From: Allacma fusca
Taxonomy: Eukaryota; Arthropoda; Collembola; Symphypleona; Sminthuridae
Assembly (NCBI GenBank): GCA_947179485.1
Contig: OX359245.1
Coordinates: 52,997,067-53,061,066, forward strand
Direction of reading: 5' to 3'
DNA length: 64,000 bases
The position numbers and the translations under genes are program-made. The notes beneath the pieces are model-generated. The model was given only the letters and a program-made list of their open reading frames with translations. It was not told where the DNA came from and did not search any database. How positions within the stretch are numbered: position 1 is the first letter of the stretch; the number at the start of each line of letters is the position of its first letter. Positions 1,311 to 42,342 of this stretch are shown piece after piece.

Positions 1311-2739
1311 CACTGGTGCCCTAGTCTAGTCCGACTTGACTAGGAAAATAGGGAATAGACTAGACTAGTGGTTAAAGCGGAGTGAAATGAATAGATTAGA
1401 ATAGACTAGCGATTCGCGAGGTTTAGAAAGACTAGACTAGACTAGAATAGTTAGATAATGAAAGCTCACAGAATAGAATAGACTTGACTAGGAAAATAGA
1501 CCTATTCCTGCTCACAAATTTCGCTCAAATTAGGCTGAATAGTGTAAGCTCAAGCACTCGTTTTCATAAAATACTTCATATTCTTTTGCGGTAAATATGT
1601 ACATGACATTCTAGCATGGAAACAAAAGGGTTCTTGTTTTTCTGCACTGCAGTAAGTAGCATTTCGTCGTTGAAGAGGTTAAGTAAACTATATTCATTTT
1701 CGATTAAAAGCAAACGCTATACAAATACATTTGCATGTAAAGCATAATGCTTTTGATGAAACCGATTGAAGCTAGTTTGGCTTTTAATTGAGAAGGCATA
1801 TAATTCATTTTACCTCTTCATAGTTCGTGTTGCTCACCCCATTTATGAATTTTTACAAGAATTGTATAGATCTTTAAGCAAAAATGAAAATATGACCGCA
1901 TGAAGGAATGATTTTTTACGTTTATCATTTGGAAACAAGTTTACTTTAGCAGCTCCTCACTTTTTTGACACAAGTTGATTCACATGCAATATTTCAGCAG
2001 TAGATTACGAAACTGGGAAATGTTTTTCAGCAAATCTCTAGTTTCCGAAATCTGTGAGGACAAATGTCACATTCGCTAATAAAGCGTAATTTTGGGATCT
2101 AGTTTATAAAACCTAACCTGACCTTCAAAAAATGAATATCAACGTGGTTTGATCGGTGATTAAAAAACTAAGTAGAAATACGAGAACTTCGAAACGGATA
2201 TTCAGTGAAAAAGGAATTAATAGATATTCTTATATCCGGAACTAGATGCTTGCTGACAAAAACTCCGGTTTTAATCTACTACTGAAATATTTTGTGTACC
2301 AATTAAAAATAATAGTGCGATCCTTCTTTGGGTAGGTGCTGGGGGTCACTAGTAGGTGCATTGATTCTGGAAGTATTCCCAGCAGTACTGAAGAAATCTA
2401 TTGTTTTATTTATGAGAGCTGGCAGCTCCCTCATTTTATCTCCTCATCCCGACCTCCCTGACTTTATCCATGAACTTCTGAGTCCAAGACAAGGATCAGG
2501 GCATTCCCTCGTCCATTACATTTGAGCGATTCCTCGAATTTTTGTAGTTTTAGCCTTGAATAGGATTGGACTAGGAATTGACTAGGAATAGACTAGGAGT
2601 TTGAAGAAAATGTGTGAATAGGAATAGACTAGACTAGTGCGAGGAAATTCGTATAAGAATAGACTAGAATTGAATAGGCAATGACAATCCTGCGAAAGAA
2701 TAGATTAGACTAGACTAGTCGAGCTCGTGGGCACCAGTG
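1311..2739. mobile_element. Non-autonomous hAT-like element, GACTAG-rich
   Basis: Terminal inverted repeat CACTGGTGCCC at the left and its complement GGGCACCAGTG at the right. The 8-bp target duplication TTTTCCTC lies at 1303-1310 and 2740-2747. The paralogous receptor flank near 20535 has the same sequence without the insert, i.e. an empty site. Subterminal zones (about 1325-1500 and 2560-2720) are packed with variants of GACTAG / GAATAGACTAG. The 1.4 kb body has no transposase reading frame, so mobilisation would need an outside transposase. Eight-bp duplications and short inverted ends are the hAT hallmark; assignment to hAT is inferred from structure only. Confidence 0.85.
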
Positions 2740-2990
2740 TTTTCCTCGTAATATCCAAAGGAATAGAATCGAAAGCAACTGTTATCCTTCTTTTCAGTGT
2801 AGGGTGCAATACGTAACTGAGACTGACAAAGTTGTACTTAGGCTTGTTAAACTTATCAGGATTCAGTGCTCGTGCAAAGAAGTAATTAGAATCGGATGAA
2901 TTAAATTTAATCAACACTGATTCAAATACAATTAAAAATAATATTAATTGCAAGATAAGTCCTCTTCTGTTTGTCAAGTAAATTACCTCT
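2740..2990 (-). other. Duplicated upstream flank of the receptor gene
   Basis: After the 8-bp duplication this segment resumes homology with about 20535-20800 (for example 'cgtaatatccaaag' and 'attgcaccctacactgaaaag'). Here it is open in one minus-strand frame with a hydrophobic start (MTNRRGLILQLILFLIVFES), but the paralog has small insertions that break that frame. I therefore treat it as conserved non-coding or decayed flank rather than a gene. Confidence 0.5.
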
Positions 2991-4738
2991 AATCTTTATT
3001 ATTGTCTGTTTGTAAAAATAAAAGTTTAGACTTAAAATATCTACAAAGTTTGTTAAATGGAATCAACAATGTCGTGATTAAATTGTCAGCTCTGATTAGT
3101 TTGCTTTTTAAAGACCCATAATTGAGAATGCGCACTTATTTTTCCCGGATCATATTAGACTACAATCGTTATATGAAGTTGCTCCTGGAACTGAGTTGCT
3201 AGGTAAATAACATGTTTCCAAGTGGGTCTGAAAACTACTACATTTCTGTCTTTGACTGTTAATAAACTTAAACTAAACTCTGCTTCCTTATAATGATTTT
3301 GACCGTGGTCGTGTTTAATTGTAGCGCATGGAAATTCTAGAATATTTGTTAAAGTTTTGAGGCATTCGAATATGTAAAAGTTATAGGTTATCACGTCAAT
3401 CACCCCCGACATGTAAACATACTTATATATTTACATACTGTGCTGGATCTCCCCCACACTTTGGCCCGTGACTTTTTGTACCTGACTTTGTCATATTTGC
3501 ACGGGTTCTTCACATTTGTGAAATTTTTGCTGGATTTGGCTTGCTGGTCAGTTTGGTACATGGTTCTATTGGTTTGTTTCTTGTGGTATTCTTGGTATAA
3601 GGTTGATAAATATGCTTCTTTTCATGATCCACTTCAATTGGTTGATTTCTTTCTTTCTCCCATCTGACAGTTGGGTCTATTATGTAACCTACTTTGGTAA
3701 CTTCTTACTTCTTTAAAACCTAAAATGTTCAAGCTACTGATTGTCAGTTAACAGAGTAAAAACAAGGGTCCAAGCAATCCAAAAAACAATACGGGTTGTA
3801 AATTTAATCCACTCATCGGAAATGTTTCCGACGATGTGTATCTGTTGTACAATGTGAGACCCACCAAACTTGTTTAATGATACATCGTCGTATAATTTCA
3901 GTCATAAGTAACTACAACCAAGGGCTGTAAAGCAGATAAGATTTTCTCAGGGTATTTTTCTCTATTTTGATACGGGAGTCTTCGTTAAGCTGTAGGGATT
4001 ATACATAACGACAATCGTAACTTTACTATCTTTATTCTCTTTGATTGTATTGGCCGCAGAGTCCCTGACAGTAACTAGGCATATATGATTAAATACTCAA
4101 CAAAACGATAAAATTATTATCATTCAGTTATTTTGATTGGTTTATTAAACTGCTTTGCAAGGAGATTTAATTATTCATTTAAGTAGTTAATAAAAAAGTA
4201 CCCGAAGAAAAGTTCAAAAATGTGTTTATATCTCAACAGGTCGAACAACACTAAAAATTGTTTTTTTTTAACATTTTCAAAATTGTTTACTATTTGGTGC
4301 CTGCCTCCTTAATAACAATTTTGGGGCCGATTTTCACCCACAGTTTCCGCCTCATGTATTTGAAATTCAATTTCCACTAAATACATTTCCAATGATTTTC
4401 AAGTATATTGTATCCACACTGATCGCCAACATTATCAATTTCACAATAATGTTGATAGGTTTCGGTACTGTTGTACCAAAGCTACTCGTTATTAAGTGCG
4501 TCGTTCATGAACAATTGTAAGTTTTTAACATTTCTTTGAATTATTTAACATCGAAAACATAGAGATGCGCTTATTTGATGAAATCCAAATATTATAAAAT
4601 AAATACACAATGTTGTGCTTCACGTGTTATTTTACATTCATATAACATGTTTTTATCATAAATATTTTAGGGAACATAATTGTACATTTTGAGATCTTAT
4701 TGAATGAAAAAGTATTGTATGTAAAATAAAGGGCCCAT
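2991..4738. other. Intergenic, no supported gene
   Basis: AT-rich sequence with only short open frames. A small imperfect hairpin around 'atcggaaatgtttccgacgat' (cut: atcggaaatgtttccgacg) lies near 3815-3835. I see no transposon ends, RNA gene or coding signal. The short minus frame at 3155-3412 is hydrophobic but matches no motif I recognise. Confidence 0.4.
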
Positions 4739-4766
4739 AAATTAATGAAAATCTCTTGTGACAGTA

Positions 4767-6571: not shown

Positions 6572-8136
6572 TAAAGGCGTGGCCCGCAGGCCATTTTCCA
6601 AGCCAACCCGAGTCTTACCCACAAATACGCAACCCGAACCCGCCCGACCCGAAAGTCAACCTCTGAAACGTCGGCCCGACCCGACCCGACAGTATTTTTT
6701 TAGGCCCACGCCAGACCGCAACCCGCTGGGTTTCAGTTGACACGGCCCGACCCAGCTTGCGGGCCCCCGCGGGGGCCCGCAATTATTTCATAACTTATTA
6801 AAACGTTGTGAGATTCGCTTCTCGGTCGGTCTTCTTCTGAATTTTAAATCATCCTCCATCACAATGTCTAAAACAGAAGTGTAAACCGTAGAAACCGAAG
6901 AATAAATGTTGTTTTATAAGTTTTTCATGTTTTAATATATGTAGCTGGTTTGATATTCAATTAATGTCATTTTGTTTAAAAATCATTGCGCAGGAAACTT
7001 GAACTAATTGTAAGAATACTGCTTTAAGAAGTTTTACATGCTATTGAGTTCAGAGCAGCAACTTAAAAACGTTACAAGTGACAGTCATACAATGATAAGC
7101 AAAAAACACGATGAAACAGGAATAGTAACAACCAACACTTAAGCCGGGTTTTTAGTTTCACTTTTGCCGTCCCTTTCCCTTACTTCTGCTGCGGGTCAAA
7201 AATGAGATTCCTTCGATGTATGACTTTCATCTGATCAAGTAGTGATTTTTGCGTTTCGTTTGCCTTTTCGTTCCCGCGTTAATAAATGAATGAAAGTATA
7301 AACTGATTACCTGTTGTATTCTAGCCGACATGCATTTTGATCAAGATTTTTTTAAAAAGGTTCTCGGGTATTACTTTTATAAATTCAAAAATAGTGGATT
7401 ACGGTTTATGTACATTAGATCAATATTTCGTACACGAAATACTACTGATTCGATTTTAACGAACGATTGAGGTCTTGAGAATTCCGAGTATAATCATAAA
7501 TATTTAGGCAAGTACACAGTATGATGTAAAAATACATGTAAAGATAATTAAAATATATCGCAGAATGAACAAGTAAAACTTTGATTAATTAAATCTAAAA
7601 AAAATTGAGAACAAAATATTCCATTAAATTAGTCAAACTCATTTAATAAATCCTCATGACCGTTTGGCCATGATATTAAGGTATGAAAAATTCCGGAATA
7701 ATTATTTTGCAATTAATTTGATGTATATATAAAAATTAGACACTGCAATTGTTCCTAAAATTTTATATTTTTATATGTATTTAGCTACAGGATGCAAACA
7801 GGAATATTTAACACAGAACTACAAACGTAAGCAATCACAAATGGACGCAAACCATATAATTCTCCTGGAAAAATTCTAAACGTCGTTGATTGAAAATTAA
7901 GCGGTTTGCGGGCTGCTTGCGGGCCCAACGTAATATAAATCCAGCCCGAACTCGCCCGCAATCCACACTATATGCATAAAGTATAACCCGATCCGCCCCA
8001 ATGAAATACGGTAATAACCCAGGCCGATCCGCAACTTGTCACATGACGAAGCATTAAACCCGAACCCGCTCTGAACCCGCACGGGCGGGTCGGGTCGAGG
8101 CCCGACCCCAATTTTTACCCGCGGCCCACGCCTTTA
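6572..8136. mobile_element. Non-autonomous hAT-like element, CCCGACC-rich
   Basis: Terminal inverted repeat TAAAGGCGTGG, 8-bp target duplication CCGTCAAT (6564-6571 and 8137-8144). The start fits the hAT end consensus YARNG. Both ends (6590-6780 and 7900-8125) are GC-rich blocks of CCCGACCCGA and GCGGGCCCGC words, in sharp contrast with an AT-rich 1.1 kb core that codes for nothing recognisable. No transposase is present. It inserted into host sequence that is continuous across 6571/8145. Confidence 0.85.
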
Positions 8137-9007: not shown

Positions 9008-9015
9008 TATATAAG
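9008..9015 (+). promoter_or_regulatory. TATA box of secreted-protein copy 1
   Basis: TATATAAG followed by ACCCAAT, exactly 106 nt before the ATG. Copies 2, 3, 5 and 6 have the same octamer at exactly the same distance. Transcription probably starts about 30 nt downstream, around the conserved 'caactttcaattcagag'. Confidence 0.75.
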
Positions 9016-9113
9016 ACCCAATATTTGCAACAACTTTCAATTCAGAGTTACATTTTCCATTGAACAGTGAACTTGAATTTTATTGCAACAGTTCCTACAG
9101 AAAACACTTGACC

Positions 9114-10177
9114 ATGCACAACACCATTGCATTCGTAAATGCAATTATCCTTGCAAGTTGTTTCTTAAGCTGCGTTTACAGCTTACCCACTCAATCAATT
9201 GAAGCAGCACTGGAAATATTTTCGACTACTCCTGCACCAACCCCAACATGTTTTGACTCCTATCCCTACCCATACAATGGTGAATTAAGGAGCATCCATG
9301 AACAAGCAGTCGATTCAGAGGTAATTACATTTATTTATTTATTTTGTCTTGGAAAGGATAAATGTTATGGGGTAATCAGTGTCCATGTTTGTAAATTGTG
9401 GCTTATTTTTAAAATCTACAGGGCCGATTGTGCTTTGAATCCTACAAAAATTTCGGCATGAACCGCTTACTTGACAAGGAAAATTTCGACAGTAACTACG
9501 CAAACGTGACTGAAGAAAATTGTCCAACATGGCCCCGATTCACTGAATGTCTCCATGAGCATGTCAACAGTGACAGATGCAATGAGGTGGAAAGACAGCA
9601 AGTTGTGGATTCTGAATACCTCAATGTGCATATTGTTATGGGGGATCTGCTATGCAGTCGTTCAAGGAATCAATACTTTCAAAACTTATGGAGAAGTAAG
9701 TGAAGAGGTCGATGAGGCTTAAATCAGTTATTAATTTCCTAATTAAAAAGTAAATGCTAAAGGTTTCATGATAATCAACAAATTGTCTGGAACTTCCCAC
9801 AGGGGCGCTCTTCGATGGTCTCTGGGACTGCGTTTTTGGGGATGACTTGCGTGAGTCTTCGGAACAGTGTGAAAATAAGAAATTTGGTCCGACCGGACAC
9901 CAGAAACGTTATCAGTAAGTTACAACTGATTTTTGTTTTGCTGACCCGAAACTTTTACTGATAATAATTATTAGTAACAGTCATTTTTTAATCCTAATTT
10001 TTTTAAATTAATTAAAATTGTAAACGCAGGGATCTGAGTCAGTTTTTTGACTGCTTGAAACCGGGAGTGAGAAGCTGCGCCAAAGGAGATCTTGTGAAGG
10101 AAGTTAAATTGATTGAGCTTTTCGAGGAATTCGATAGAGCTCTTCAAGATACACATAGAGCGTTTTGGAATTATTGA
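9114..10177 (+). CDS. Secreted Cys-rich protein, array copy 1 (intact)
   Basis: Four exons: 9114-9320, 9422-9695, 9803-9914, 10030-10177 (741 nt, 246 aa), all with GT-AG borders; intron phases 0, 1, 2. The ATG was chosen because it starts a hydrophobic signal peptide (MHNTIAFVNAIILASCFLSC) conserved in all copies. After it comes a short Pro/Thr-rich linker (SLPTQ...TTPAPTPTC). Exon 2 holds five cysteines and a 'CPTWPRF..CL.EHVNSDRC' core. Exon 3 holds 'LWDCVFGDDL..S.EQC', and exon 4 'FFDCLKPGVRSCAKGD' and an acidic helix-like tail ending in FWNY. There are ten cysteines in the mature part and a potential N-glycosylation site (NVT), so it is probably extracellular. I do not recognise the family; a distant link to 27-kDa hemolymph-type proteins is only a thought. 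AATAAA lies at 10408-10413. Confidence 0.85.
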
Positions 10178-13263: not shown

Positions 13264-13824
13264 CAGGGGTCGGACTTGAAAGATTCTTCCCAGGGAAAAA
13301 ATATTTCCGGCAGGGAAAATCTCAAAGGGAGGGGATTTATTTTTACGAACAGGGATTTTCAAAATCGTTGACCTTTTTTGGCAGTGAGTTTCAGGGGAAT
13401 TTATTATTCAAACAGGGATTTTTAGATTGATTGGTCTAATTTGGCAGGGATTTCACGTCTTGTAGGGGATTTTTCTTTGCCAACAGGGATTTTCAAATCG
13501 TTGACCTTGTTTTCAGCAGGGATTTTTCAAATCGTTGACCTTGTTTTCAGCAGGGATTTTTCAAATCGTTGACCTTGTTTTCAGCAGGGATTTTTCAAAT
13601 CGTTGACCTTGTTTTCAGCAGGGATTTTTCAAATCGTTGACCTTGTTTTCAGCAGGGATTTTTCAAATCGTTGACCTTGTTTTCAGCAGGGATTTTTCAA
13701 ATCGTTGACCTTGTTTTCAGCAGGGATTTTTCAAATCGTTGAGGACCTTCCAGCAGGGAGATAATATTCAGCAGGGAAATTCGAAAATCATCTTTCAGGG
13801 AGATTTACAAAACTCCAACCCCTG
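13264..13824. mobile_element. Non-autonomous hAT-like element, CAGGGATTTT-rich
   Basis: Ends CAGGGGTCGGACTT and, inverted, CAGGGGTTGGAGTT; 8-bp target duplication CCCTATAC at 13256-13263 and 13825-13832. CAGGGG is a classic hAT terminus. The 561-bp body is made of CAGGGATTTT and TCAAATCGTTGACC words, part of which has become a 34-bp tandem repeat. No coding capacity. Confidence 0.85.
13488..13750. repeat. 34-bp minisatellite
   Basis: Unit CAGCAGGGATTTTTCAAATC + GTTGACCTTGTTTT, repeated at 13514, 13548, 13582, 13616, 13650, 13684 and 13718 with no visible change, plus degenerate flanking units. It is built from the host hAT-like element's own words and was evidently amplified recently. Confidence 0.9.
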
Positions 13825-13929: not shown

Positions 13930-15083
13930 TAGGGTATGCCGATTGAAATTGCCCTGCAGTATTTGCCCGCCCAGCTGAAAATGCCTATAATGCCTGCCCA
14001 CATGCTCAAAATCGGGTAAGTGGGCAGCTTTTGAAAATGCCCTGATTTTGGGCATTTTGGGCAGGGCAAGTTGGGCATTTTGGGCATTTTCACGGCACCA
14101 AAATTGGATTACTAGCATATATTCAGAATATAAATCCAAATGCATCAAAGTGCAGCCAAGGAAGCGTTACAAATGTCAATATCTGGATATTCGCTTGTTC
14201 GTAATATATTATAATGGCAAAAACAGCCAAATCAATTTAATTTCATTGACGTAAGGTGATATCATTTACCACTCCTATGAAAATAAATTTCTATGTAAAC
14301 AATAATATGAAATAAATTTACGCATGCGTCACTGACTGGCGGGCAGAAATACTATTAAGTACTACTAAAGTAAAAATCTGATGGTAAGGGATCAGTCAAA
14401 ATTTTAATAGGTGATGAAGCTGAATTTTATACTCAGTTTATTCTACATCACTATTGTCTGCAGTTTGCAACGATCAGCCAAAAATGGCTCGAGTAAAAAC
14501 AAATAAATATCCTCCGTACAGGTCCCCCAAATATTGTTGTTTGTAGTTTTATGGTTTATAAAACAATTCCCGTATGGGTTCAAATTTTAGCGAAAAGACA
14601 TTTCTGATCGCAGTAGACATACATGTATAGGGGTATGTGAATATTCCATGATGATGGGAGTTCATTTTACATCGTCTGCAGTTTGGAAAAATAGTTCCTA
14701 GAATAATTTAATTTATAGCCGTATCGTGTACAGGTGTTTCAAAAATTCAAAATGGTATCAAAACGTATTTCGTCACCGGTTGAATTAACTTCGTCAACAT
14801 GACATAAATCTAATACAATTTTTAAGGTAATTTCGAACGCTTTTTCTCCAAAATTACAAAGAAATTTTCAAATCCATTGTCAAATTATATAGATTGTGCT
14901 ATTATATTACCCGATTCTGCCCGAAATGCCCAATTTGTCCTCGATGAAAATGCCCAAAATGCCCTTGCCCAACATGAGCTAATATGCCGCCCTCGCCCTG
15001 AAATGAAAATGCCCAAATTGCCCCGGCATTTTGGGCGGACAATTTGTCCAAAATGCCGGGCATTTTCAAATCGACATAACCTA
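13930..15083. mobile_element. Non-autonomous hAT-like element, GGGCATTTT-rich
   Basis: Ends TAGGGTATGCCGATTGAAA and, inverted, TAGGTTATGTCGATTTGAAA. The 8-bp target duplication is GTTGCAGC at 13922-13929 and GTTCCAGC at 15084-15091, one mismatch, so it is older than its neighbours. TAGGG fits the hAT YARNG rule. Both ends carry ATGCCCAAAATGCC / GGGCATTTTGGGC words; the core is AT-rich and non-coding. The same words recur at 21250 and 22.2-24.5 kb. Confidence 0.75.
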
Positions 15084-15239: not shown

Positions 15240-15732
15240 TGTACCTCTTGCCTTCATAAATACATTCTTCAGGCGTCGAAAATACAAACTACAAAATACT
15301 AAATACATCCTTTAGGCGCCGAAAATACAAACTATAAAATACTAAATACATCCTTTAGGCGCCGAAAATACAAACTATAAAACACTAAATAAATTCTTTA
15401 TACGTCGAAAATACTGACTATAAAATACTAAATACATACTTGAAACGCAGAAAATACAAACTACAAAATACTAGACAAATATTTGAAACGCAGAAAATAC
15501 AAACTACAAAGTGATAAATACATACTTGAAAAGTAGAAAATACAGACCCCAAAATGCTAAATACATACTTCAAACGTAGAAAATAAAAACTACTAAATAC
15601 ATTGCTTCCTTTACGTAATACAAAATATACTTAGCGACCAAAATACGAAATATATTTAGCGACAAAAATACAAAAATGTATTTTAAATGCGTATTTGAAC
15701 AAACATGTATTTAAAATAACATAACAGCTCTG
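15240..15732. repeat. 43-bp degenerate tandem repeat ending in a hAT-like terminus
   Basis: About eight degenerate copies of a 43-bp unit (CTAAATACATCCTTTAGGCG + CCGAAAATACAAACTATAAAATA). The block ends at 15732 in ...AACAGCTCTG, whose inverse CAGAGCTGTTATG resembles the end of the element at 26418 (CAGAGCTATGC), which uses the same AAATACAAA vocabulary. A matching left end was not found, so this is probably a truncated relative. Confidence 0.55.
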
Positions 15733-21249: not shown

Positions 21250-21352
21250 TATTATTGCCCGAAAATGCCCTACTTTCAAAATGCCCGGCATTTTGGGCAT
21301 TTTCGGCAGGCATTTTGGGCATTTTCGGCAGGCATTTTGGGCATTTTCGAAT
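21250..21352. repeat. GGCATTTTGGGCATTTTC repeat block
   Basis: About five units of GGCATTTTGGGCATTTTCGGCA and its inverse, the same vocabulary as the element at 13930 and the satellite at 22.2-24.5 kb. Probably a remnant or one end of a related element; no terminus or target duplication was identified. Confidence 0.6.
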
Positions 21353-21359
21353 TTTTTGT

Positions 21360-22160
21360 AAATAATCATTATTTACCGCTCTTTTTTAGCGACCAGATTG
21401 TTTTAAAGGTCAAACTTCATTTAAAAATATACATTTTACAGAATGAATTAATCTAAAGCTTCGTAATTTGTAAACTATTAGTATTCTTATATTGTTTCTT
21501 CCCTTGCGTATTGCTAATCTAATTCAACAATATCCTCAACATCAACTCACCTTCGGACTCGTGAAAAGTAAAACTATAATTTTCGTCATCTAAAATATTT
21601 TTTTCCAATTCAGGGAATGCAGTGATATTTTATACACATGATAATCATGTCTAATTTGTTTTGATGAACTCGGTTCTGGCTTTGTTGAGAATTATTTCAC
21701 CAACGCTGGTTCTTGTGAGCTTAAATCGATTTCTTTGGTCACATCGATGCCCAGAGCAATATCCGTTTAGGTAATAAATTTGGATAATTCCCGTTTTACC
21801 TCCACTTGGGCTTTTAAACTTGCGTGCGAGCACGCCACTTTATGGTATAATCCAACTGCTTGTTTTGAAAGTAATTACACAACATTTTATTTTCACCGAT
21901 GCCTGACCAATGAAGCTGAATATTGTCATTGATTCGAGGTATCCGGATTAAATCTCAAGTGAAAATTAAGAAAATGGAATCAGATTTAAAATAATGATAA
22001 TAAAAATGTTAGTATAGTGAATCAAGACACGCGACATGCTACAATAATGAAATTTCAGGTATGCATTTACAAAGATATTTGCATCGATTCAAACAAAACA
22101 TGTATCCGAATTTACCTCGCTGAAAAAATAATAGAAAGAGTCCAGGCAGAAGTATCCCAA
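21360..22160. other. Intergenic, no supported gene
   Basis: AT-rich sequence between two blocks of the same repeat vocabulary. Short frames only. I could not find the left end of the element that finishes at 24486 here. Confidence 0.4.
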
Positions 22161-22204
22161 GAAATGATTGAATATGCCCAAAATGGATATCCCTACGCGG
22201 ATTA

Positions 22205-24357
22205 TGCCAAAAATGCCGAAAATGCCATAGATGCCGAAAATGCCATAGATGCCGAAAATGCCATAGATGCCGAAAATGCCATAGATGCCGAAAATGCCAT
22301 AGATGCCGAAAATGCCATAGATGCCGAAAATGCCATAGATGCCGAAAATGCCATAGATGCCGAAAATGCCATAGATGCCGAAAATGCCATAGATGCCGAA
22401 AATGCCATAGATGCCGAAAATGCCATAGATGCCGAAAATGCCATAGATGCCGAAAATGCCATAGATGCCGAAAATGCCATAGATGCCGAAAATGCCATAG
22501 ATGCCGAAAATGCCATAGATGCCGAAAATGCCATAGATGCCGAAAATGCCATAGATGCCGAAAATGCCATAGATGCCGAAAATGCCATAGATGCCGAAAA
22601 TGCCATAGATGCCGAAAATGCCATAGATGCCGAAAATGCCATAGATGCCGAAAATGCCATAGATGCCGAAAATGCCATAGATGCCGAAAATGCCATAGAT
22701 GCCGAAAATGCCATAGATGCCGAAAATGCCATAGATGCCGAAAATGCCATAGATGCCGAAAATGCCATAGATGCCGAAAATGCCATAGATGCCGAAAATG
22801 CCATAGATGCCGAAAATGCCATAGATGCCGAAAATGCCATAGATGCCGAAAATGCCATAGATGCCGAAAATGCCATAGACGCCGAAAATGCCATAGATGC
22901 CGAAAATGCCATAGATGCCGAAAATGCCATAGATGCCGAAAATGCCATAGATGCCGAAAATGCCATAGATGCCGAAAATGCCATAGATGCCGAAAATGCC
23001 ATAGATGCCGAAAATGCCATAGATGCCGAAAATGCCATAGATGCCGAAAATGCCATAGATGCCGAAAATGCCATAGATGCCGAAAATGCCATAGATGCCG
23101 AAAATGCCATAGATGCCGAAAATGCCATAGATGCCGAAAATGCCATAGATGCCGAAAATGCCATAGATGCCGAAAATGCCATAGATGCCGAAAATGCCAT
23201 AGATGCCGAAAATGCCATAGATGCCGAAAATGCCATAGATGCCGAAAATGCCATAGATGCCGAAAATGCCATAGATGCCGAAAATGCCATAGATGCCGAA
23301 AATGCCATAGATGCCGAAAATGCCATAGATGCCGAAAATGCCATAGACGCCGAAAATGCCATAGATGCCGAAAATGCCATAGATGCCGAAAATGCCATAG
23401 ATGCCGAAAATGCCATAGATGCCGAAAATGCCATAGATGCCGAAAATGCCATAGATGCCGAAAATGCCATAGATGCCGAAAATGCCATAGATGCCGAAAA
23501 TGCCATAGATGCCGAAAATGCCATAGATGCCGAAAATGCCATAGATGCCGAAAATGCCATAGATGCCGAAAATGCCATAGATGCCGAAAATGACATAGAT
23601 GCCGAAAATGACATAGATGCCGAAAATGCCATAGATGCCGAAAATGCCATAGATGCCGAAAATGCCATAGATGCCGAAAATGCCATAGATGCCGAAAATG
23701 CCATAGATGCCGAAAATGCCATAGATGCCGAAAATGCCATAGATGCCGAAAATGCCATAGACGCCGAAAATGCCATAGATGCCGAAAATGCCATAGATGC
23801 CGAAAATGCCATAGATGCCGAAAATGCCATAGATGCCGAAAATGCCATAGATGCCGAAAATGCCATAGATGCCGAAAATGCCATAGATGCCGAAAATGAC
23901 ATAGATGCCGAAAATGCCATAGATGCCGAAAATGACATAGATGCCGAAAATGCCATAGATGCCGAAAATGACATAGATGCCGAAAATGCCATAGATGCCG
24001 AAAATGACATAGATGCCGAAAATGCCATAGATGCCGAAAATGACATAGATGCCGAAAATGCCATAGATGCCGAAAATGCCATAGATGCCGAAAATGACAT
24101 AGATGCCGAAAATGCCATAGATGCCGAAAATGACATAGATGCCGAAAATGCCATAGATGCCGAAAATGACATAGATGCCGAAAATGCCATAGATGCCGAA
24201 AATGACATAGATGCCGAAAATACCATAGATGCCGAAAATGACATAGATGCCGAAAATGACATAGATGCCGAAAATGACATAGATGCCGAAAATGACATAG
24301 ATGCCGAAAATGACATAGATGCCGAAAATGACATAGATGCCGAAAATGCCATGAATT
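22205..24357. repeat. 18-bp satellite (GCCGAAAATGCCATAGAT), about 119 copies
   Basis: Near-perfect tandem array. Three units carry ATAGAC for ATAGAT (near 22879, 23347, 23761). GACATAG for GCCATAG appears as a pair near 23590 and then, from about 23893 to 24225, alternates almost strictly with the normal unit, giving a 36-bp higher-order repeat. The last units are all GACATAG. Because 18 is a multiple of three, several frames stay open for 750-807 codons on both strands; these encode only hexapeptide repeats and have no gene-like flanks. Confidence 0.95.
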
Positions 24358-24486
24358 GAAAATGCCGAAAATGCCATGAATTGAAAATGCCGAAAATGCC
24401 ATGAATTGAAAATCCCCAAAATGCCCGGGCATTTTCGGCAGGCAAAATGCCCAAAATACCACGGCATTTTCAATTGGCCAACCCTG
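24358..24486. mobile_element. Right terminus of a hAT-like element bordering the satellite
   Basis: Three 26-27-bp units of AATGCCGAAAATGCCATGAA lead into a palindromic zone (TGCCCGGGCATTTTCGGCAGG) and then GGCCAACCCTG, ending at 24486. Inverted, this end reads CAGGGTTGGCCAATTG, a typical hAT terminus. No matching left end or 8-bp duplication was found, so the element is truncated or its left end has diverged. It shows how the 18-bp unit derives from an element's subterminal words. Confidence 0.55.
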
Positions 24487-25860: not shown

Positions 25861-26267
25861 TAGTGATGCCAATGGTCTGGTCTGATCCAGCTTTTATGAA
25901 ACTGGTCTGGTCCGAAGCTCAGACCTGACCAATGGTCTGGTCCAGTTTTTCGGACCAGACCAGACCAAAGACCATGGTCTGGAACATGGTCCAGAAAACC
26001 ATAGAGTACAATTAGGCAATCACATTTTATCCAATGAAATTCTTGTTTTATCACCAGAAATGACATTTTTAATTCGTTCCATGGGATTTCGTTAACTCAT
26101 AATTTTTTATTTTGCATACTTTTTGGACCATGGTCCTTGTGGTCTGGTCTGGTCTGGTCCTGAAGCTGGACCAATTGTATCTGGTCTGGTCCAAGTGTTG
26201 GATTAGACCGGACCAGACCAATAACGGACCATTATAAATGGTCCGGACCAGACCATTGGCATCCCTA
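25861..26267. mobile_element. Non-autonomous hAT-like element, GGTCTGGTCC-rich
   Basis: Ends TAGTGATGCCAATGGTCTGG and, inverted, TAGGGATGCCAATGGTCTGG; perfect 8-bp target duplication GTATAGGG at 25853-25860 and 26268-26275. At 407 bp it is one of the two shortest of the set. The outer thirds are GGTCTGGTCC / GGACCAGACC words; the centre is AT-rich. No coding capacity. Confidence 0.9.
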
Positions 26268-26417: not shown

Positions 26418-28497
26418 CAGAGCTATGCAAAATACTTGGTCTTCAATAACAAAATACAAAATAAAATACCTGAAATAAAACATGGAAAATACAAAGTAAA
26501 ATACCTCAGGATACATTTCTAAAATACAAATAAAAATACAATACATCGTAGGTAAACTAAAATACTCAAATACAAAATACTGTATTTTAAATACAATACT
26601 TTCCTTAAAATACCCACCTAATGCTCACTCTTTTTGGTTTCTAGAACACAAAAAGCGTTAAGAAGCAACCGTTTAAAACATAATCAGATAACTATAATCA
26701 CATCAAAGATTGCATATAAGACGTGTAGTAACAAATTGTTCAACTATTGTCAAATAAGTCAGTCCATTATAAATATGATTTAAATCGTTTTAACTGTTAA
26801 AGCAGTTAATGGTTGCAGTTGGAATAATTTTTAGATATTAGTTATTATATAAATTAGTATATGAAAATTAAATTGAGTCGGTCTTCGGCGTCTCTTAATC
26901 AGTGCTGCGATCGGGTCAAGTAATTTGAAAACTTGACCATGAACTTGACTTGACCACGAAACTTCAAGTAATTTTCAAGACACAACCTGAACTTGATAAC
27001 TCGCGTTCGTGTAATTACTTGACTTGTCAAGTTCAAGTAATCAAGTAACTTTTGTAAGACCCGAACTTGATCAAGTAGTTAAATTTCCAAACTTGACTTG
27101 AACTTGACTTGACCATGACTTGAACGCGACTTGAACTTGATAATTCAAGTTAAGCATCACAAAAAATTAAACATGGCCACAATACCTTGTCGAACTTGCT
27201 GTAGCAAATTATTTCCTTCAGACTGAAAACCAAAACGCATTCAGAAAACAGTTTTACTGCTACTTTTTATTTAAAACCATTCGAGGACAAATTTGAGCGT
27301 ATACTGAATACAGTAAAAGTTTGATATAAGGGAGTATATAATTTATAAAGGAATTTACCTTATACAAAACGTCTAAAGCATTGTGTAAATGAAATGGGGT
27401 CAAACAAATGCAACCCTGATATTCATACATTCCTTATAAGCTGCGCACTTATAACGGACTTTTACTGCATACCTGACGAGCTTTTCAGGGTGTCAAGTTT
27501 TATTTAATGTTTATATATGTATATATACATATACCTATTTGAGCATTACCAGTACTCTTAATTTAAAATTTAAGAAACTAGTATTTACTTATTTATTAAA
27601 CGCTTTTTGTAAAGAGTCATCCAAGCTCAATTTATATTGGAATTTATTTACACAATTTGAAAATAATAATTCTAAGCAACAATATGAATTATCAAGATAA
27701 TTCTTTCATTTCATGGAAAGGCCGCTGCAACAACTAACAATGAGCAACGTCTGGTAAACAAGACCTTTATAAAATGGACTGGCATACGCAATCTAAAATT
27801 ACTTGAACTTGACCATGAAATCTCAAGTTCATGGTCAAGTTTTTTCTTTCCATTACTTGACCCTGAACTTGACTTGAGATTCAAGTAAATTTCTCTTACT
27901 TGTACTTGAACCTGACTTGTCTTAGAATGTCATGGTCAAGACGAGTACGTTCTTGAACTTGACCCGAAAGATTCAAGTAAAAATATTGTCCTACTTGAAC
28001 TTGACCCGAACTTGAACTTGACTTGAAAACTCAAGTATTACTTGAACTTGTCCGCAGCACTGCTCTTAATACCGTTGTTGAAGAGTCAAAATGGTTTATG
28101 CCGTACAAAAGCATGCGCGCGCAAACCATCTTCAGTGACGATATGTAATACCGAGAACCTGAAAATGTTTCATGTAGTAAAGGGATTCATTCCAACGTAT
28201 GCTACTTCAATGCTAAAATGAAATTCTCACAGATATTGCACATCATACAAGCTACATACAACGTCAAAGTCAGAAATCATACAGGTGAAAAGTATTTTGA
28301 GCCAAATACTATATTTGAAATACATTTCACATGTCATTGAGAGTAAGTAAATACCAAATACTTTTGTACTTAATAGATCTTAAAATACTACGTACAAAAT
28401 ACTGGCCCACTGCGTGTCAATTTGGAAATACAAAATACTTTGTGGTCTGAAAATACGTATTTTGAAATACTGTATTTGAAAATACTGCATAGCTCTG
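26418..28497. mobile_element. Non-autonomous hAT-like element, AAAATACAAA-rich
   Basis: Ends CAGAGCTATGCAAAATAC and, inverted, CAGAGCTATGCAGTATTT; perfect 8-bp target duplication AAACTAAA at 26410-26417 and 28498-28505. Subterminal zones (26440-26600, 28290-28480) are AAAATACAAAATAC words. It encloses another complete hAT-like element at 26900-28062. No transposase. Confidence 0.9.
26900..28062. mobile_element. Non-autonomous hAT-like element, ACTTGAACTTG-rich (nested)
   Basis: Ends CAGTGCTGCGATC and, inverted, CAGTGCTGCGGAC; perfect 8-bp target duplication CTCTTAAT at 26892-26899 and 28063-28070. Both ends (26930-27150 and 27795-28050) consist of ACTTGAACTTGACTTGACC words and their inverses; the centre is AT-rich. 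It inserted into the element at 26418, so it is the younger of the two. Confidence 0.9.
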
Positions 28498-29167: not shown

Positions 29168-29175
29168 TATATAAG
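29168..29175 (+). promoter_or_regulatory. TATA box of copy 3
   Basis: TATATAAG, 106 nt before the ATG at 29274. Confidence 0.75.
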
Positions 29176-29273
29176 ACTCAATATTTGCAACACATTCCAA
29201 TTCAGAGTCACATTTGCCATTGAACAGTGATCTTGATTTTTATTGCAACAGTTCCTGCAGAAAACACTTCACC

Positions 29274-31243: not shown

Positions 31244-31569
31244 AAAATTCAAAATACGATATAAACATCATTAAAACAAAACCAGCCTTATTCTCTATCT
31301 ACCATAAACATTTTATAAATTTTCGTTATCTAATTGTAAGCACATGGGAATATCCATAATAAGTAGTCGCCTGTAAATGATGGTTCTCATAATCAGCAAC
31401 AGCATAAATAAAAATTGGGCATAATCATTAAATGGACAATTAGCAATGGTTCATAAGACCCAATGTTTCTAACAGCTTCCAATTTAGAGTTACATTTACC
31501 ATTGAACAGGGAACTATAGATTTTCGTTGTTGCAGTATTAAAGTTAAGTTTACAAACAAATATTCAACC

Positions 31570-34245: not shown

Positions 34246-36429
34246 CAAGGCTATAGATAGTAACAGGTTCGGACATAGCGTATGCTGAAACAACCCCCTC
34301 GATGTGACGTCATCAAAAGTCATTTCTTACTACACATACTACACAAGTATGTAAACAATTCTCAAAATAGAGTGAATAAGATTTTTAATTATTTTCAAGT
34401 ATTACAATTAAATTTAAAATTAACCCACAACAACAACAGAGCTATTAACAAATTGTTTCCTTTTCACAAAATTAATCCGTGGCTTCTGCTTTTTAGCAGG
34501 GAATTAGTTAAGATTAAAAATCCCAGCTGACACTTGCGTTTCTTGCTGTTTCTGTAAATTTGGATCTTGCTTATTCCATGAATGCCTTTAAATTGAATAA
34601 CGACACCGTGTGAAACTCCATGTGAGCACCAAATCCCAACTTATTATTATTTTTGGAATAAAATTGAAAACAGGAAGTTTGGTAAAAATCTCTTCGTCAA
34701 AAGTCAACTTGCTCGTTCGCCTTCATAAAGTTCTGTGTTATTGCAGTGGAATTTGCAAATATTCCTTGGTCACACGATAGGTTTTAGTACTTAGGTACTT
34801 GATTGTCAATGCCTTTGAAACATCCCCTATGCTCCAGTTGACACTTTTGTGACCACTAATTAATTTGGCTTGGTCGGGGGAAAGAGATATTTAAGTGGTT
34901 TGTGTTTACTTAATGTAGCTTTTATACTTAGAACTTTAGAATCACACAAATAATCATCACGATTTCACTTCTCTGATTTGAAATGATTGATTGAAGTTTC
35001 TTCATGAGCTAATTTTGATCACCTTGAATTTGTTATGCTTTACAATAAGTTGTTAATTTCATCTCTAATTTTTTTTTGTAGACAGTTACTTCGAATTAAT
35101 GAAACTGGTTGAGTTCTGAATGGAAACACATTGGGAACGGCCGTTCTTTTTAATATTTTTTAGGTGTAAAATCCAAAAATAAAATTTTTAAATCTCAGAC
35201 ATAATCACTTTCACTGAAATGATGTGAACAAATCCTAGCTGTAACACAATTTAAGTTCTCTTTCCTCTTACACTTACCAACCCAAACCATACCTAATTGA
35301 GAATTTTTAGGGAACTGGTGACTCTGTTTGTGACTTGAACTCTGTTTAATATTTTAATGTTTTACATTCCGCTATTGCACAAATAAAGTTCACATTAAAT
35401 AATTTTATTTGCTTCTTTACACGGATTGTCAATTAGAGCTACTTGTGGGAACGAAAAGTTTGATCCCATTCCCGAACCCGATCCCGAAAATCGGGTCATC
35501 AATATTTTCGGACTCAAACCCAAACCCGTTCCCGAAATACTGGGATCAGGTGCACAAAAACCCAGATATTAAATATGCTTCAATCGTTGATCTCAAACCC
35601 GATCCCGATCCCGAACCCGAAATCAGATAAAATTTGCTCCCAATCCCGATCCCAAAACCCTTGAACCCGGACTCGTTCCCGGGACCAGTGCAGTTAGTGT
35701 AAATCATTTTTTTTCTTCGCATTTTTATTGATTTAGCAATACTTATGCATGCGTACCATGCAACAATAGATTTAGGCACTATTAAAAATGGTCATCAAAC
35801 TAAACGTCTGGTCTGCGTTGCCGAAAAAGCTGCAGGAAGACTGCTTAAACGATTCCCGCTATGAGTTTTGCAATGACTTTCATCTTGCAAGTTAGAGTAG
35901 GCGGTAATCACTACTATGCGATCCCAACTGACAATATGCGAAACGGCTCAAGTCGCTTATGTAAAATTATTATCTCAACACTTTAAAGAGGGAAGCAAAT
36001 CCCGCTGAGGGTATTTTTTCTCCGTTAGATGGATGCGTAGTTCCCGGGAACGTGAAGCGTGTAACGGGTGTGGGAACGAAGATGTTCCCGGTTCCCGACG
36101 GGAACACAAATACCTTCATCAAGCTTGAACCCGTTCCCAAACCCGGTCCCGATCTCGAAATCCCGGGTCTGCTGAGCATGTTCCTGAACCTGGTCCCAAA
36201 GTATTTGGGAACATTAATTAGACACCCGAACTCGAACCCGTTCCCGATCCCGAACCCAATTCCCGGGTGTATCCCGATCCCAAAAGTAGCTCTATTGTCA
36301 ATTAAAAACAAGTAGAGCGCTCGCTGAGATCACTTTTACTGACGTCACAGTCCCCTAAGTTTGTCCACCTCTCCGCCCTATTCATTCTTACATGCGATGT
36401 GGCCGAACCTGTTACTATCTATAGCCTTG
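34246..36429. mobile_element. Non-autonomous hAT-like element with 27-bp perfect inverted ends
   Basis: Starts CAAGGCTATAGATAGTAACA and ends with its perfect inverse; 27 bp match exactly before the first difference. Perfect 8-bp target duplication TACGGTTC at 34238-34245 and 36430-36437. CAAGG fits YARNG. Unlike most of the set it has no short-word vocabulary of its own; the CCCGATC block inside belongs to a second element at 35434. It inserted into the duplicated upstream region of copy 5. No transposase frame. Confidence 0.9.
35434..36294. mobile_element. Non-autonomous hAT-like element, CCCGATCCCGAACC-rich (nested)
   Basis: Ends TAGAGCTACTTGTGGGAACG and, inverted, TAGAGCTACTTTTGGGATCG; perfect 8-bp target duplication TTGTCAAT at 35426-35433 and 36295-36302. 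Both outer thirds are CCCGATCCCGAACCCGTTCC words, the centre AT-rich. It lies inside the element at 34246. No coding capacity. Confidence 0.9.
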
Positions 36430-37460: not shown

Positions 37461-37468
37461 TATATAAG
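37461..37468 (+). promoter_or_regulatory. TATA box of copy 5
   Basis: TATATAAG, 106 nt before the ATG at 37567. Confidence 0.75.
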
Positions 37469-37566
37469 ACCCAATGTTTCTTGCAACTTCTAATTAAGAG
37501 ATTAATTCCCCTTTGAACAGTGAACTTCATTTTGTTAGAAACCACTCCAACAACAAACAGTCAATC

Positions 37567-38586
37567 ATGCACAGCATCATTGCTGGCATAAATGCAATTA
37601 TTATTGCAAGTAGTGTGCTAACAATAAGCTGCGTTTGCAGCTTACCCACTCAGCCAATTGGAGCCGACCTGGATATATTTTCCTCCACCCCTCAACCATT
37701 GCCTACATGTTTTGAGCCGTATCCACACCCACACATCGGTGAAATAAGAAGCATACATAAATATGCTGTCGATTCGGAGGTACGTACCATTCATGTTTTT
37801 TTCTATTTGAAAATTGTATGGAAGTAATGGCCATGTTTGTGTATTGCATCGTATTTCTAAAATCTACAGGGTCGGCCCTGCTTTGAATCCTACAATGAAT
37901 CTGAGATGCGTCGTCTATTGGACAAAACTAATTTCGAAAGTAACTATGTAAATGTGACTGCAAAAAATTGCCCGACGTGGCCTCAAATGAAGCAATGTTT
38001 CCGGGATCATGTCAATAGTCACAAATGCAGTGAGGAGGAAAGACAGCGCGTTGTGGATTCCGAATTTGTGAATTCACATATTATTTTTGCCGAGCTGTTA
38101 TGCAATCCTGAAAGGGCTCAGTACTTTCGGAACTTATGGAAAAGTTAGTTAAGTCGGCTAAAACCTTAATCCAATTATGGACAAGCCTAATAATTATTAA
38201 GATTTTGGTGATCAAGATTTTTTGGCAACTTCCTACAGATGCGCTTAAGGCAGGCCTCTGCGACTGTATTTTTGGAAAAGAATTCCACGAGCTGTCAGAG
38301 GAGTGCGATGCTACGAAATTTGATGAGCATGGACACCGAGCGCCTTTTAAGTAAGTTATCATTGAAGAATGACTAGCAGTAAAACAATTTGTAGTCATGA
38401 GATTTTACTGTAATACATTTTAAGTAAATTTATAAATGCAGGGACCTGGGTCTATTTTTCGAATGCATGAAACCTGGGGTGAGAAAATGCGCCAAAGGTG
38501 ATAATGCAAAGGAAATCAAATTGGTTCAGTTATGGGAAGATTATGATCGAGCACTTCAAGATACACACCTGGCTTTTTGGAACTGA
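37567..38586 (+). CDS. Secreted Cys-rich protein, array copy 5 (intact)
   Basis: Exons 37567-37779, 37870-38143, 38239-38350, 38442-38586 (744 nt, 247 aa). Borders are GT-AG, with a weaker GTTAGT donor after exon 2. Signal peptide MHSIIAGINAIIIASSVL is two residues longer than in other copies (extra TIS before C). Core motifs: 'CPTWPQMKQCFRDHVNSHKC', 'LLCNPERAQYFRNLW', 'GLCDCIFGKE' with one extra cysteine, 'FECMKPGVRKCAKGD', ending in AFWN. All frames are open, so it is probably functional. Confidence 0.85.
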
Positions 38587-38717: not shown

Positions 38718-38760
38718 AATAATTAGCAGTAAAATAATAATTATTTTACTGCTAATTATT
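38718..38760. repeat. 43-bp near-perfect palindrome
   Basis: Arms AATAATTAGCAGTAAAATAA and its complement around three central bases, about 130 nt after the copy 5 stop. Could form a hairpin in the 3' UTR or act as a terminator-like or RNA stability element; function unknown. Confidence 0.8.
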
Positions 38761-39936: not shown

Positions 39937-39958
39937 GAGGTCAACTATACGTAACCTC
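39937..39958. promoter_or_regulatory. GAGGTCA...TAACCTC palindrome, copy 6
   Basis: GAGGTCAACTATACGTAACC + TC: both half-sites conserved but the spacer is two bases longer than elsewhere. 297 nt before the ATG. Confidence 0.45.
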
Positions 39959-40127
39959 AAAACTAAACATTTGCGTCCTCAAATCAAAACCTATTCTTCA
40001 TCTTCACCAGACATTTTTTCCCAATTTCTTCTTTATCTCAGCAAATGGGAATACCCTTAATAAATAACTGCTTATAAATAGCATTTGTCGTAATAAGCAT
40101 TTGCGTCAATAGCAGCATGGTCAGTAA

Positions 40128-40135
40128 TATATAAG
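40128..40135 (+). promoter_or_regulatory. TATA box of copy 6
   Basis: TATATAAG, 106 nt before the ATG at 40234. Confidence 0.7.
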
Positions 40136-41136
40136 ATCCAATGTTTCTAACAGCTTCCAATCCAGAGTTCCATTTCTCACTGAACAGTGAACTTGGATTT
40201 TATTGCACTAATTCCTACAGAAAACACTTAACTATGCACAACAGCATTGCATTCCTAAATGCAATTATTATCATTGCAAGCAGTGTGCTAAACCGCGTAT
40301 GCAGCTTGCCCACTGAGCCAATTGAAGCAGTCCAGGAAAAATTTTCGACAACTCCTGAACCATCGCCAACATGTTTTGAACCGTATCCGTATCCATACAA
40401 CAATGAAATAAGAAGCATTCGCGAATATGCTATCAATTCAGAGGTAATGAATATTGTCTTGTGGGTTGAAATAATATATTTTATGGGGTATTGATCATAT
40501 ATGCTTGTAACTTGCAATGTGTTTCTAAAATCCACAGGGTATGTCGTGCTTTGAAGCCTATAAAGGCTCTCCCATGAACAACCTGCTAGACAAAACTAAT
40601 TTCGACAGGAACTACGCCAGAACATTGTCCCCCTTGGCCCCAAATCAAGCAATGTTTCCTGGATCATGTCAATGGTCACAAATGCAATGAGGAGGAACGA
40701 GAGCACGTTGTGGATTCTGAATTCACTAGTAGAAAGCCCTGCTCAGCAGGGATAATTACTTATAGGTTCGGGATACTCTCACATAGACGCTAGAATATGC
40801 ATGAGTATAATGAGATTTAAGACTTGAAATATTAGAATAATTCAAGCAATATATCATGGTGAAGCGCACTTGGGAACTTCCCACCAAGGCCCTGCTCATG
40901 CCCCATGCTTGACCTGTAGATCGCGGCTGGGAGTTAGTCCCGCTTTAACATACAAATGTTAATTTATCCTTTAAAAATTTCCTTAAATACAACATTTGTT
41001 GTAAATATTTCATTTCTGCCATCAAGTATTTTTCCTTGATGTTCAGTATTGACAATTTTGACTTTAACTTTCTTCCATGAGGTATGTTCCTTGGTAATTG
41101 TCCATATGTAAAACCTGATTGAAAAACCGTGTGAAC

Positions 41137-41290
41137 CAATGGGTCTCTACTACTTTCCACCTTTGGTTAAACCAGTGGGACACCTGGACTTTCCACCCTT
41201 GTTTAACACAATGGGTCTCCTCTACTTTCCACCCTTGGTTACACCAATGGGTCTCCTCTACTTTACATCCTTGTTTAACCCAATGGGTAA
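41137..41290. repeat. 36-bp minisatellite
   Basis: About four units of CCAATGGGTCTCCTCTACTT + TCCACCCTTGGTTAAA with small changes, inside the insertion in copy 6. Confidence 0.8.
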
Positions 41291-41943
41291 ACAACACGTC
41301 TCAAAGCAGTTTTAAAAATGGGTAAATCCAAATAATATTAAAATAAAAGTTCGACAATAGCCAAGGAAAAGTTCCCACAATACTTAAACACACAAAAGTC
41401 CAACTATGTATATGCGGAGAAACCTCAAGACAATTCCCAAAGCAAGTGTAAAAATATCCGTAAATCCAAACATAAAAGTTCAACCATATCCAGAAAAGTC
41501 CACACTATTGAAAATCCTCGTTGTAAATGCAGAGCGATGAAGGAGAGAAGTTTTAAGTTTTGAGTTTCGACTGGATAGAACGATAGAAGCTTCGGCTCGC
41601 TGGCGCTGGCCTGGGTTTGCTGTATAGACCACCGAATTACTTCGCTATATAGTAGTATATAAACCGGTGGTATATACATACATCAAGCCGAAGCTATATT
41701 TGAGTGCGATGATGCGATAGATAATGCAGGAGACAGGAGGAGGAGCGGAGTAGCGGAGGAGGAGAGTCGGAGATCGGAGATTGATTCCACTATAGCCGCT
41801 CCGTAGTGTACTACTTCACTATATATCAAACCAAGCCGGTGGTATATACAGCAAGGAAGCAAGCTGAGCAGCACTGAGCACAGCGAGCTGAAAAAGCTCT
41901 CCTCTGCGACAGAGTTTCAGCTCGCTGTGCTTGTGCTTCTCGG

Positions 41944-42342
41944 TAATGTTAGGGAAAAGTGATTGTCTCTCTCGGGACTGAACAGGGAGTGGAGAGAGTG
42001 CAGTGAGAGTGGGACTGATATGTATGAAAACGGTTGGGACTGAGAGTGAGTGGGACTGACGGATTGAACTAATTCAAGTGCATGGGCTGAGCGGGACTGA
42101 TGCGCATACAATATTAAGCAATTTTTAAGTTTTAGCGCCATATATTAAAGCCCAAGGATGGAAATTAGCGCTATTTTGTATCCTTGGGGACTGAGTGGGA
42201 GTTTGACCAAGGAGTTTATTGGGACTGAGACTGAGTTGGACTCACACTATAATAAGCAAGGACTGAGTGGACTGAGTGTATGTTAGCCCTTTTGGGACTG
42301 ATCGGGAGTGGGAGTGACGAACTGGGAGTTTACCTATCATTA
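41944..42342. mobile_element. Non-autonomous hAT-like element, GGGACTGAGT-rich
   Basis: Ends TAATGTTAGGGAAA and, inverted, TAATGATAGGTAAA; perfect 8-bp target duplication CTTCTCGG at 41936-41943 and 42343-42350. The 399-bp body is almost wholly GGGACTGAGTGGGACTGA words. No coding capacity. Its target is the palindromic sequence of the larger insertion. Confidence 0.85.

What the first reader, a model, noticed from the sequence alone, without database searches (positions are those of the whole stretch)
1311..42342. A community of ten non-autonomous hAT-like elements, nine of them written in a private short-word vocabulary
Ten elements (1311, 6572, 13264, 13930, 25861, 26418, 26900, 34246, 35434, 41944) show 8-bp target duplications and inverted ends, nine duplications perfect and one with one mismatch. 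All but the one at 34246 have outer zones saturated by their own 6-10-base words (GACTAG; CCCGACC; CAGGGATTTT; GGGCATTTT; GGTCTGGTCC; AAAATACAAA; ACTTGAACTTG; CCCGATCCCG; GGGACTGAGT) around an AT-rich core. hAT transposases are known to bind short subterminal repeats; here those repeats seem to have expanded until they form most of the element. I infer that each vocabulary is the recognition code of a different transposase with a BED-type zinc finger. Such a diverse, word-based MITE set in 40 kb is, to my knowledge, not a described pattern.
Basis: partly seen in the sequence, partly recalled or inferred. Interest (0 to 1): 0.9.

Follow-up and report, generated by a model that had tools for sequence, protein, structure and literature searches.

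The report
Jumping genes with word-filled ends
A 41-kb stretch of what is probably an animal genome holds ten small parasitic DNA elements of the hAT kind, and nine of them carry ends packed with a short repeated word of their own, most likely landing sites for the enzyme that moves them: an extreme and crowded form of something already known.

Summary
All ten elements have 8-bp target duplications (nine perfect, one with one mismatch) and hAT-type inverted tips; 19 of 20 tips fit YANNG. A blind scan returned eight of them, and no YANNG pair at duplication lengths 6, 7, 9 or 10. Nine of ten have outer zones enriched for one word beyond 2,000 background samples; 34246 does not. None can encode a transposase.

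I add two partial copies: 15258-15732 carries the vocabulary of 26418, and 21264-24486 that of 13930, each with one end resembling its partner's. This is the only evidence here that words and tips travel together.

Best reading: non-autonomous hAT elements mobilised in trans, the words being subterminal repeats bound by the transposase's finger, as in print for Hermes, Herves and Ac. Density and diversity are unusual; the principle is known.

Corrections: words do not form most of the long elements, the core is not always AT-richer, and two elements are words throughout. In five elements words lie mostly on one strand at both ends; none of the nine word elements is significantly mirrored. The host genome could not be searched: copy number, autonomous partners and binding are untested.

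The parts
1311..2739 (.). E1: non-autonomous hAT, duplication TTTTCCTC, tips CACTGGTGCCC, word GACTAG x19, mostly + strand at both ends
6572..8136 (.). E2: non-autonomous hAT, duplication CCGTCAAT, tips TAAAGGCGTGG, words CCCGACC/ACCCG, mixed strands
13264..13824 (.). E3: non-autonomous hAT, duplication CCCTATAC, tips CAGGGGTYGGA, word CAGGGA(TTTT) on + strand throughout, with a 34-bp tandem array 13484-13742
13930..15083 (.). E4: non-autonomous hAT, duplication GTTGCAGC/GTTCCAGC, tips TAGGGTATGCCG / TAGGTTATGTCG, word GGGCATTTT, mixed strands
25861..26267 (.). E5: non-autonomous hAT, duplication GTATAGGG, tips TAGKGATGCCAATGG, word GGTCTGG
26418..28497 (.). E6: non-autonomous hAT, duplication AAACTAAA, tips CAGAGCTATGCA, word AAATAC, mostly + strand at both ends; interrupted by E7
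26900..28062 (.). E7: non-autonomous hAT nested in E6, duplication CTCTTAAT, tips CAGTGCTGCG, word ACTTGA(AC), mixed strands
34246..36429 (.). E8: non-autonomous hAT without words, duplication TACGGTTC, long inverted repeat (39-nt arms 90% alike); TGACGTCA once near each end (34305, 36340); interrupted by E9
35434..36294 (.). E9: non-autonomous hAT nested in E8, duplication TTGTCAAT, tips TAGAGCTACTT, words CCCGATCCCG / CCCGAACC, + strand at both ends
41944..42342 (.). E10: non-autonomous hAT, duplication CTTCTCGG, tips TAATGWTAGG, word GGGACTGA on + strand throughout
15258..15732 (.). E11: partial relative of E6: AAATAC words in eight 43-bp units; right end CAGAGCTGTTATG (read inward) at 15732; left end and duplication not found
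21264..24486 (.). E12: partial relative of E4: GGCATTTT words at 21264-21345 and 24345-24468 around an 18-bp array of 119 copies holding the same word; right end CAGGGTTGGCCAATTG (read inward) at 24486; left end and duplication not found

Best explanation
The ten elements are non-autonomous hAT transposons, several of MITE size, cut and pasted by hAT transposases made elsewhere in the genome. The tip (YANNG plus the rest of a roughly 13-32-bp imperfect inverted repeat, longer in 34246) is the catalytic recognition and cut site; the 8-bp duplication is the insertion footprint. The short words in the outer 150-250 bp of each end are binding repeats for the transposase's N-terminal finger; many copies raise the avidity of a recogniser that reads only 4-6 bases. 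Vocabularies differ because the elements belong to different hAT families with different fingers. Words multiply by slippage and are kept or tolerated when they bind; some grow on into minisatellites. Shown: footprints, tips, word enrichment and placement, no coding capacity, two recurrences of vocabulary with tip. Inferred: transposase in trans, binding of the words, avidity as the selective force.
For: Tips and duplications. Word scores 31-93 against a background maximum of 26.7 in 2,000 samples. End clustering in 7 of 9. The same word at both ends across word-free stretches of up to 1083 bp. Longest stop-to-stop frame inside any element 110 aa; no hAT or BED hit among 36 window ORFs scanned of the 55 listed, plus one added. 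Of 221 between-element end pairs the three best scores (13, 12, 12; next 8) join vocabulary sharers; the fourth such pair (E6 left, E11 right) is not among the 25 best. Print: Hermes BED finger binds AAG(T/C), 17 and 14 sites in its ends (PMC10368747); Herves binds a repeated CG/AATTCAT motif, sufficient as a tetramer (PMC3143072); Ac binds AAACGG, and 534 of 903 maize Ac/Ds-type elements keep three or more (PMC3260210); motifs of four hAT proteins match their own subterminal regions and specificities vary widely (PMC8097297).
Against: No transposase, no autonomous copy and no second full copy of any family was seen; the genome search did not complete. Words and tips are not strictly coupled. 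No 10.5-bp phasing (p=0.58), whereas Hermes needs exact phasing of its first repeats, and mutating its inner putative sites did not dramatically reduce activity. Seven maize Ds-like elements with such hexamers were tested and did not excise, so words do not prove mobility. Word columns are not significantly better kept than spacers in E11 (0.931 against 0.825, p=0.09). The ends of E11 and E12 were chosen by eye partly for likeness, and the 25 bases compared include some word; in the same call random window 25-mers reached 7 at the 99% and 14 at the 99.9% level (arrays included, which inflates this).
Confidence: 0.75

Rival explanations
1. The words are by-products: slippage and gene conversion spread whatever short sequence lay near the ends, as in minisatellites, and they do nothing for transposition. 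The elements themselves are still hAT.
For: Plain tandem growth in 13264 (34 bp x7.6, 99%) and at 22204-24352 (18 bp x119, 98%); no phasing; no significant word conservation over spacers.
Against: The same word at both ends of seven elements across a core largely free of it; recurrence of word with tip in two further copies; repeated subterminal sites are functional in Hermes, Herves and Ac in print.
Confidence: 0.18
2. Not hAT but another superfamily with footprints of about 8 bp (P, Mutator-like, Zisupton-like, Merlin; list recalled).
For: An 8-bp duplication alone is not exclusive; no transposase is at hand.
Against: 19 of 20 tips fit YANNG (chance 0.029 per position), with eight blind finds only at length 8.
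Confidence: 0.03
3. The words are sites for a host factor (silencing or transcription) rather than the transposase.
For: Hermes needs about 200 bp of each end for a reason not explained by its own finger sites; its authors suggest a host factor.
Against: A host factor would predict one shared vocabulary, not nine.
Confidence: 0.03
4. Chance or composition artefact.
For: Low-complexity AT runs also score as repetitive.
Against: 0 of 2,000 background pairs reach any of the nine word scores; the footprint scan is specific to length 8.
Confidence: 0.01

Closest known systems
Hermes (hAT, housefly), subterminal repeats and BED domain (PMC10368747; passages and sections 6, 14 and part of 17)
   Same: hAT, many short finger sites in both ends (17 and 14), arrangement not mirrored between the ends
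   Different: its site is 4 bases (AAG(T/C)) with exact phasing of the first ones; here words of 5-10 bases cover 26-54% of the outer 180 bp (one mismatch allowed) without 10.5-bp phasing
Ac/Ds family of maize (PMC3260210, passages)
   Same: non-autonomous elements with 8-bp duplications that keep tips and subterminal AAACGG hexamers around unrelated filler
   Different: one vocabulary for 903 elements; here nine word families in ten elements within 41 kb
Herves (Anopheles hAT; PMC3143072, passages)
   Same: an octamer motif repeated in both ends, sufficient for binding as four direct copies
   Different: autonomous element with several, not dozens of, copies
MITEs with tandem arrays that give rise to satellites (review PMC12628747, passages)
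   Same: tandem repeats inside non-autonomous elements can expand into satellite DNA
   Different: the passages seen describe captured or internal repeats; here the array unit contains the subterminal word (E12, E3)

Membership tests
hAT superfamily | 8-bp target site duplication | tested here: met
   10 of 10, nine perfect and one with one mismatch; the blind YANNG pairs occur only at length 8
hAT superfamily | short inverted tips of YANNG type (consensus recalled) | tested here: met
   19 of 20 tips; chance per position 0.029
hAT superfamily | transposase with RNase H-like fold, dimerisation domain and BED finger | not testable with these tools
hAT subterminal repeats | short repeated motif clustered inside both ends | tested here: met
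   9 of 10 enriched; 7 of 9 end-clustered, two have words throughout
hAT subterminal repeats | motif bound by the cognate transposase | not testable with these tools
   needs the autonomous partner and a binding assay
MITE | no coding capacity | tested here: met
   longest stop-to-stop frame 110 aa, in E9, made partly of words
MITE | small size | tested here: inconclusive
   399-1565 bp once nested insertions are left out; several exceed the usual MITE size (recalled)
MITE | high copy number of near-identical copies | not tested
   The genome search did not complete; in the window only two diverged partial relatives (E11, E12)
Other superfamilies with footprints of about 8 bp (P, Mutator, Zisupton, Merlin) | their own tip sequences and transposases | not tested
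   set aside because YANNG fits hAT; tip consensus of the others not looked up

The most novel reading that the evidence does not exclude
Word number and word polarity are the selected traits. Non-autonomous copies compete for scarce transposase by adding finger sites, a run-away in avidity; in a subset the words run on one strand through the whole element, so that the left end reads them forwards and the right end backwards. Polarity alone would then tell left from right and hinder left-left pairing, a general version of the end asymmetry that Hermes needs. The genome would host at least eight hAT specificities side by side, and old word zones would seed minisatellites.
Probability: 0.12. Interest if true: 0.75.

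Novelty: new variant of a known kind. Interest (0 to 1): 0.5.

Why it matters
If the words are transposase sites, each non-autonomous element is a readable record of the DNA preference of an unseen hAT transposase. Finger specificities could then be predicted from sequence and tested in bulk, and one could ask whether binding-site number is under selection among parasitic elements. It also gives a concrete route from transposon end to minisatellite.

Tried and rejected
Helical phasing of words: none (period 10.5 p=0.58; best of 17 periods tried, 11.75, uncorrected p=0.028, which left out E3 for its array, E8 for lack of words, and strand sets with fewer than four words). Word-over-spacer conservation in E11: not significant (p=0.09). 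Mirror symmetry of words: significant in none of the nine; but E12 leans to mirror (left 6 and 2, right 2 and 7), E4 is mirror at word lengths 5 and 7 and a tie at 6, E2 is mirror at 6 and 7. Strict coupling of word and tip: rejected (E2/E9 and E6/E9). Relatives in IMG/VR: six patterns gave 0, 14, 3, 0, 29 and 2 loci; none of the 48 holds a duplication-plus-YANNG pair, and the 31 found by tips have 0-2 words in 250 bp inward. One pattern in genome contigs: 0. Host naming: protein search with the ORF at 63099-63665 gave none of 51 candidates at E 0.001; the Ty3/gypsy pol at 47640-50867 has relatives in many eukaryotes. A word cluster at 11174-11276 was read: no tips seen, left unassigned. Other repetitive stretches outside the elements are AT-rich runs and 36-bp and 92-bp tandem repeats.

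DUF1397 matches are below Pfam's cut-off (18.0 and 14.1 against 25.7 bits), so 'arthropod' became 'animal'. Hermes section 14 reports that re-making the asymmetry of the first three repeats did not rescue a left-left element; this speaks against the polarity reading, and I lowered that probability from 0.15 to 0.12.
Full report
WHAT WAS CHECKED. The window (64,000 bp, 37% G+C) is eukaryotic: it holds a pyridoxal-dependent decarboxylase exon at 61710-62123 and LTR elements, one with a Ty3/gypsy pol whose relatives include proteins of spiders, a tick, a turtle and a fish. Weak DUF1397 matches below Pfam's cut-off would fit an arthropod, but no call names the host. The genomes held by the genome search are prokaryotic by its description, and the search of the own genome did not complete in nine tries.

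THE ELEMENTS ARE REAL. For each of the ten starts I searched downstream for the matching duplication and inverted tip and read the sequence of all ten. All ten close: 1311-2739, 6572-8136, 13264-13824, 13930-15083, 25861-26267, 26418-28497, 26900-28062 (nested in the previous), 34246-36429, 35434-36294 (nested in the previous) and 41944-42342. Nine duplications are perfect and one has one mismatch; 19 of 20 tips read YANNG. A scan that did not know the list found 19 pairs at duplication length 8, of which eight have YANNG at both ends, all on the list; at lengths 6, 7, 9 and 10 none of 51, 17, 5 and 6 pairs does. The two missed fell to a complexity filter (1311) and to the mismatch (13930). 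The same scan on 48 unrelated loci, about 430 kb, found none.

THE WORDS ARE REAL, IN NINE OF TEN. With 6-mer expectations from the rest of the window, the best word in the outer 200+200 bp scores 31-93 in nine elements, 9.9 in 34246, and at most 26.7 (AAAAAA) in 2,000 background pairs. A cruder measure is less clean: five of the nine are reached by 6-21 of 2,000 background pairs; the most repetitive stretches outside the elements are mostly AT-rich runs. Words crowd the ends in seven of nine; 13264 and 41944 are words throughout. Exact words cover 11-40% of the outer 180 bp per end, 26-54% with one mismatch, against 0-18% (exact) of cores. So 'saturated ends' is fair, and 'most of the element' is true of the smallest at best. 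The AT-rich core is clear in five of the nine, slight in 1311 and 35434, absent in 13264 and reversed in 26418. 'Private' is fair for most words but not for AAATAC and CAGGGA, which are common elsewhere in the window.

TWO MORE COPIES. The vocabulary of 26418 (AAATAC) recurs at 15258-15732, with eight 43-bp units, and ends at 15732 in a tip like that of 26418. The vocabulary of 13930 (GGGCATTTT) recurs at 21264-21345 and 24345-24468, around an 18-bp array of 119 copies whose unit contains the same word, and ends at 24486 in a tip like that of 13930. Their left ends and duplications were not found. Of 221 between-element end pairs the three best scores join vocabulary sharers, and the fourth such pair is not among the 25 best. 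I had chosen these two ends partly by likeness, and the 25 bases compared include some word, so this is support and not proof.

POLARITY. After thinning tandem copies (and dropping the later units of the 34-bp array), words lie mainly on one strand in five elements, the same strand at both ends: 13264 10 of 10, 26418 19 of 23, 35434 9 of 9, 41944 9 of 9, 1311 9 of 11 (p=0.065 for the last). Four are mixed (6572, 13930, 25861, 26900). None of the nine is significantly mirrored. The partial copy at 21264-24486 leans to mirror; by word length 13930 and 6572 change between readings. Five of five in the same sense has a chance of 1 in 32, and the split into polarised and mixed was made after seeing the data, so this is a lead. 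The Hermes paper says that left-end repeats 2-7 are antisense and right-end repeats 1-5 sense. If both ends are read from the tip inward, as a figure legend suggests, Hermes repeats also lie on one strand; that is my reading. It also says that end asymmetry is required, that symmetrised left-left ends pair antiparallel and keep little activity, and that re-making the asymmetry of the first three repeats did not rescue this, which counts against repeats alone setting left and right. In Kat1 the polarity of repeats is said to differ between the two ends.

MECHANISM. Elements without coding capacity (longest frame 110 aa) but with intact footprints must have been moved in trans. In print, hAT transposases bind multiple subterminal repeats: Hermes through the BED finger; Herves through a repeated octamer that suffices as a tetramer, with Ac, Tol2 and Tag1 cited there as binding short repeats; Ac through AAACGG; Kat1 with repeats that may help cleavage. 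Four hAT proteins tested on arrays prefer motifs found in their own subterminal regions, and specificities diverge widely. Different word sets in different families are therefore expected. That a word is bound here, and that more words win in competition, is inference.

CAUTIONS. Strong tandem growth in 13264 and in the 18-bp array shows that word density can arise without selection. There is no 10.5-bp phasing, and word columns are not significantly better kept than spacers in the 43-bp units (p=0.09). Words and tips are not strictly coupled across elements. Seven maize Ds-like elements that carry such hexamers did not excise when tested.

LITERATURE. Ten searches of the held library listed no paper that, by title and start of abstract, describes many word-filled hAT vocabularies side by side. 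Most subscription journals are missing from that library and repeat databases were not searched, so this absence is weak evidence. Seen as passages: PMC10368747 (also sections 6, 14 and part 1 of 17), PMC8097297, PMC3143072, PMC3260210, PMC4763223, PMC3517528, PMC12628747. Abstract and outline only: PMC2872659. Others: search listing.

VERDICT. A well-supported observation with a mostly right reading; ordinary in principle (hAT subterminal repeats), unusual in density, diversity and possible polarity.

Noticed in passing
22204-24352: 18-bp minisatellite of 119 copies (98% matches), open in several frames; its unit contains the GAAAATGCC word of element 13930, so it may be a minisatellite born from a transposon end.
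   Followed up: partly
15868-16747: 12-bp minisatellite CTAAACTTGGAT, 73 copies, just after the partial element at 15258-15732; origin unknown.
   Followed up: no
34305 and 36340: TGACGTCA occurs only twice in the window, once near each end of the word-free element 34246.
   Followed up: partly
9015-9700, 17127-17741, 29175-29854, 31444-31821, 37498-38145, 40135-40491: Similar ORFs for a secreted-looking protein; two of five pieces scanned have weak DUF1397 matches below cut-off. hAT elements lie between the copies.
   Followed up: partly
871-1299 (-) and 20110-20535 (-): Two copies of an unassigned ORF, 82% identical.
   Followed up: no
46049-60700 (-): Two neighbouring LTR elements; in the second the 664-aa frame at 53351-55345, downstream of pol, has no Pfam match.
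   Followed up: no
41661-41691, 41832-41860, 42347-42378: Inverted copies of a GGTGGTATATAC-containing sequence around element 41944, which seems to have landed in another repeat.
   Followed up: no
11174-11276: Small cluster of AAAATAC words without recognisable tips.
   Followed up: partly
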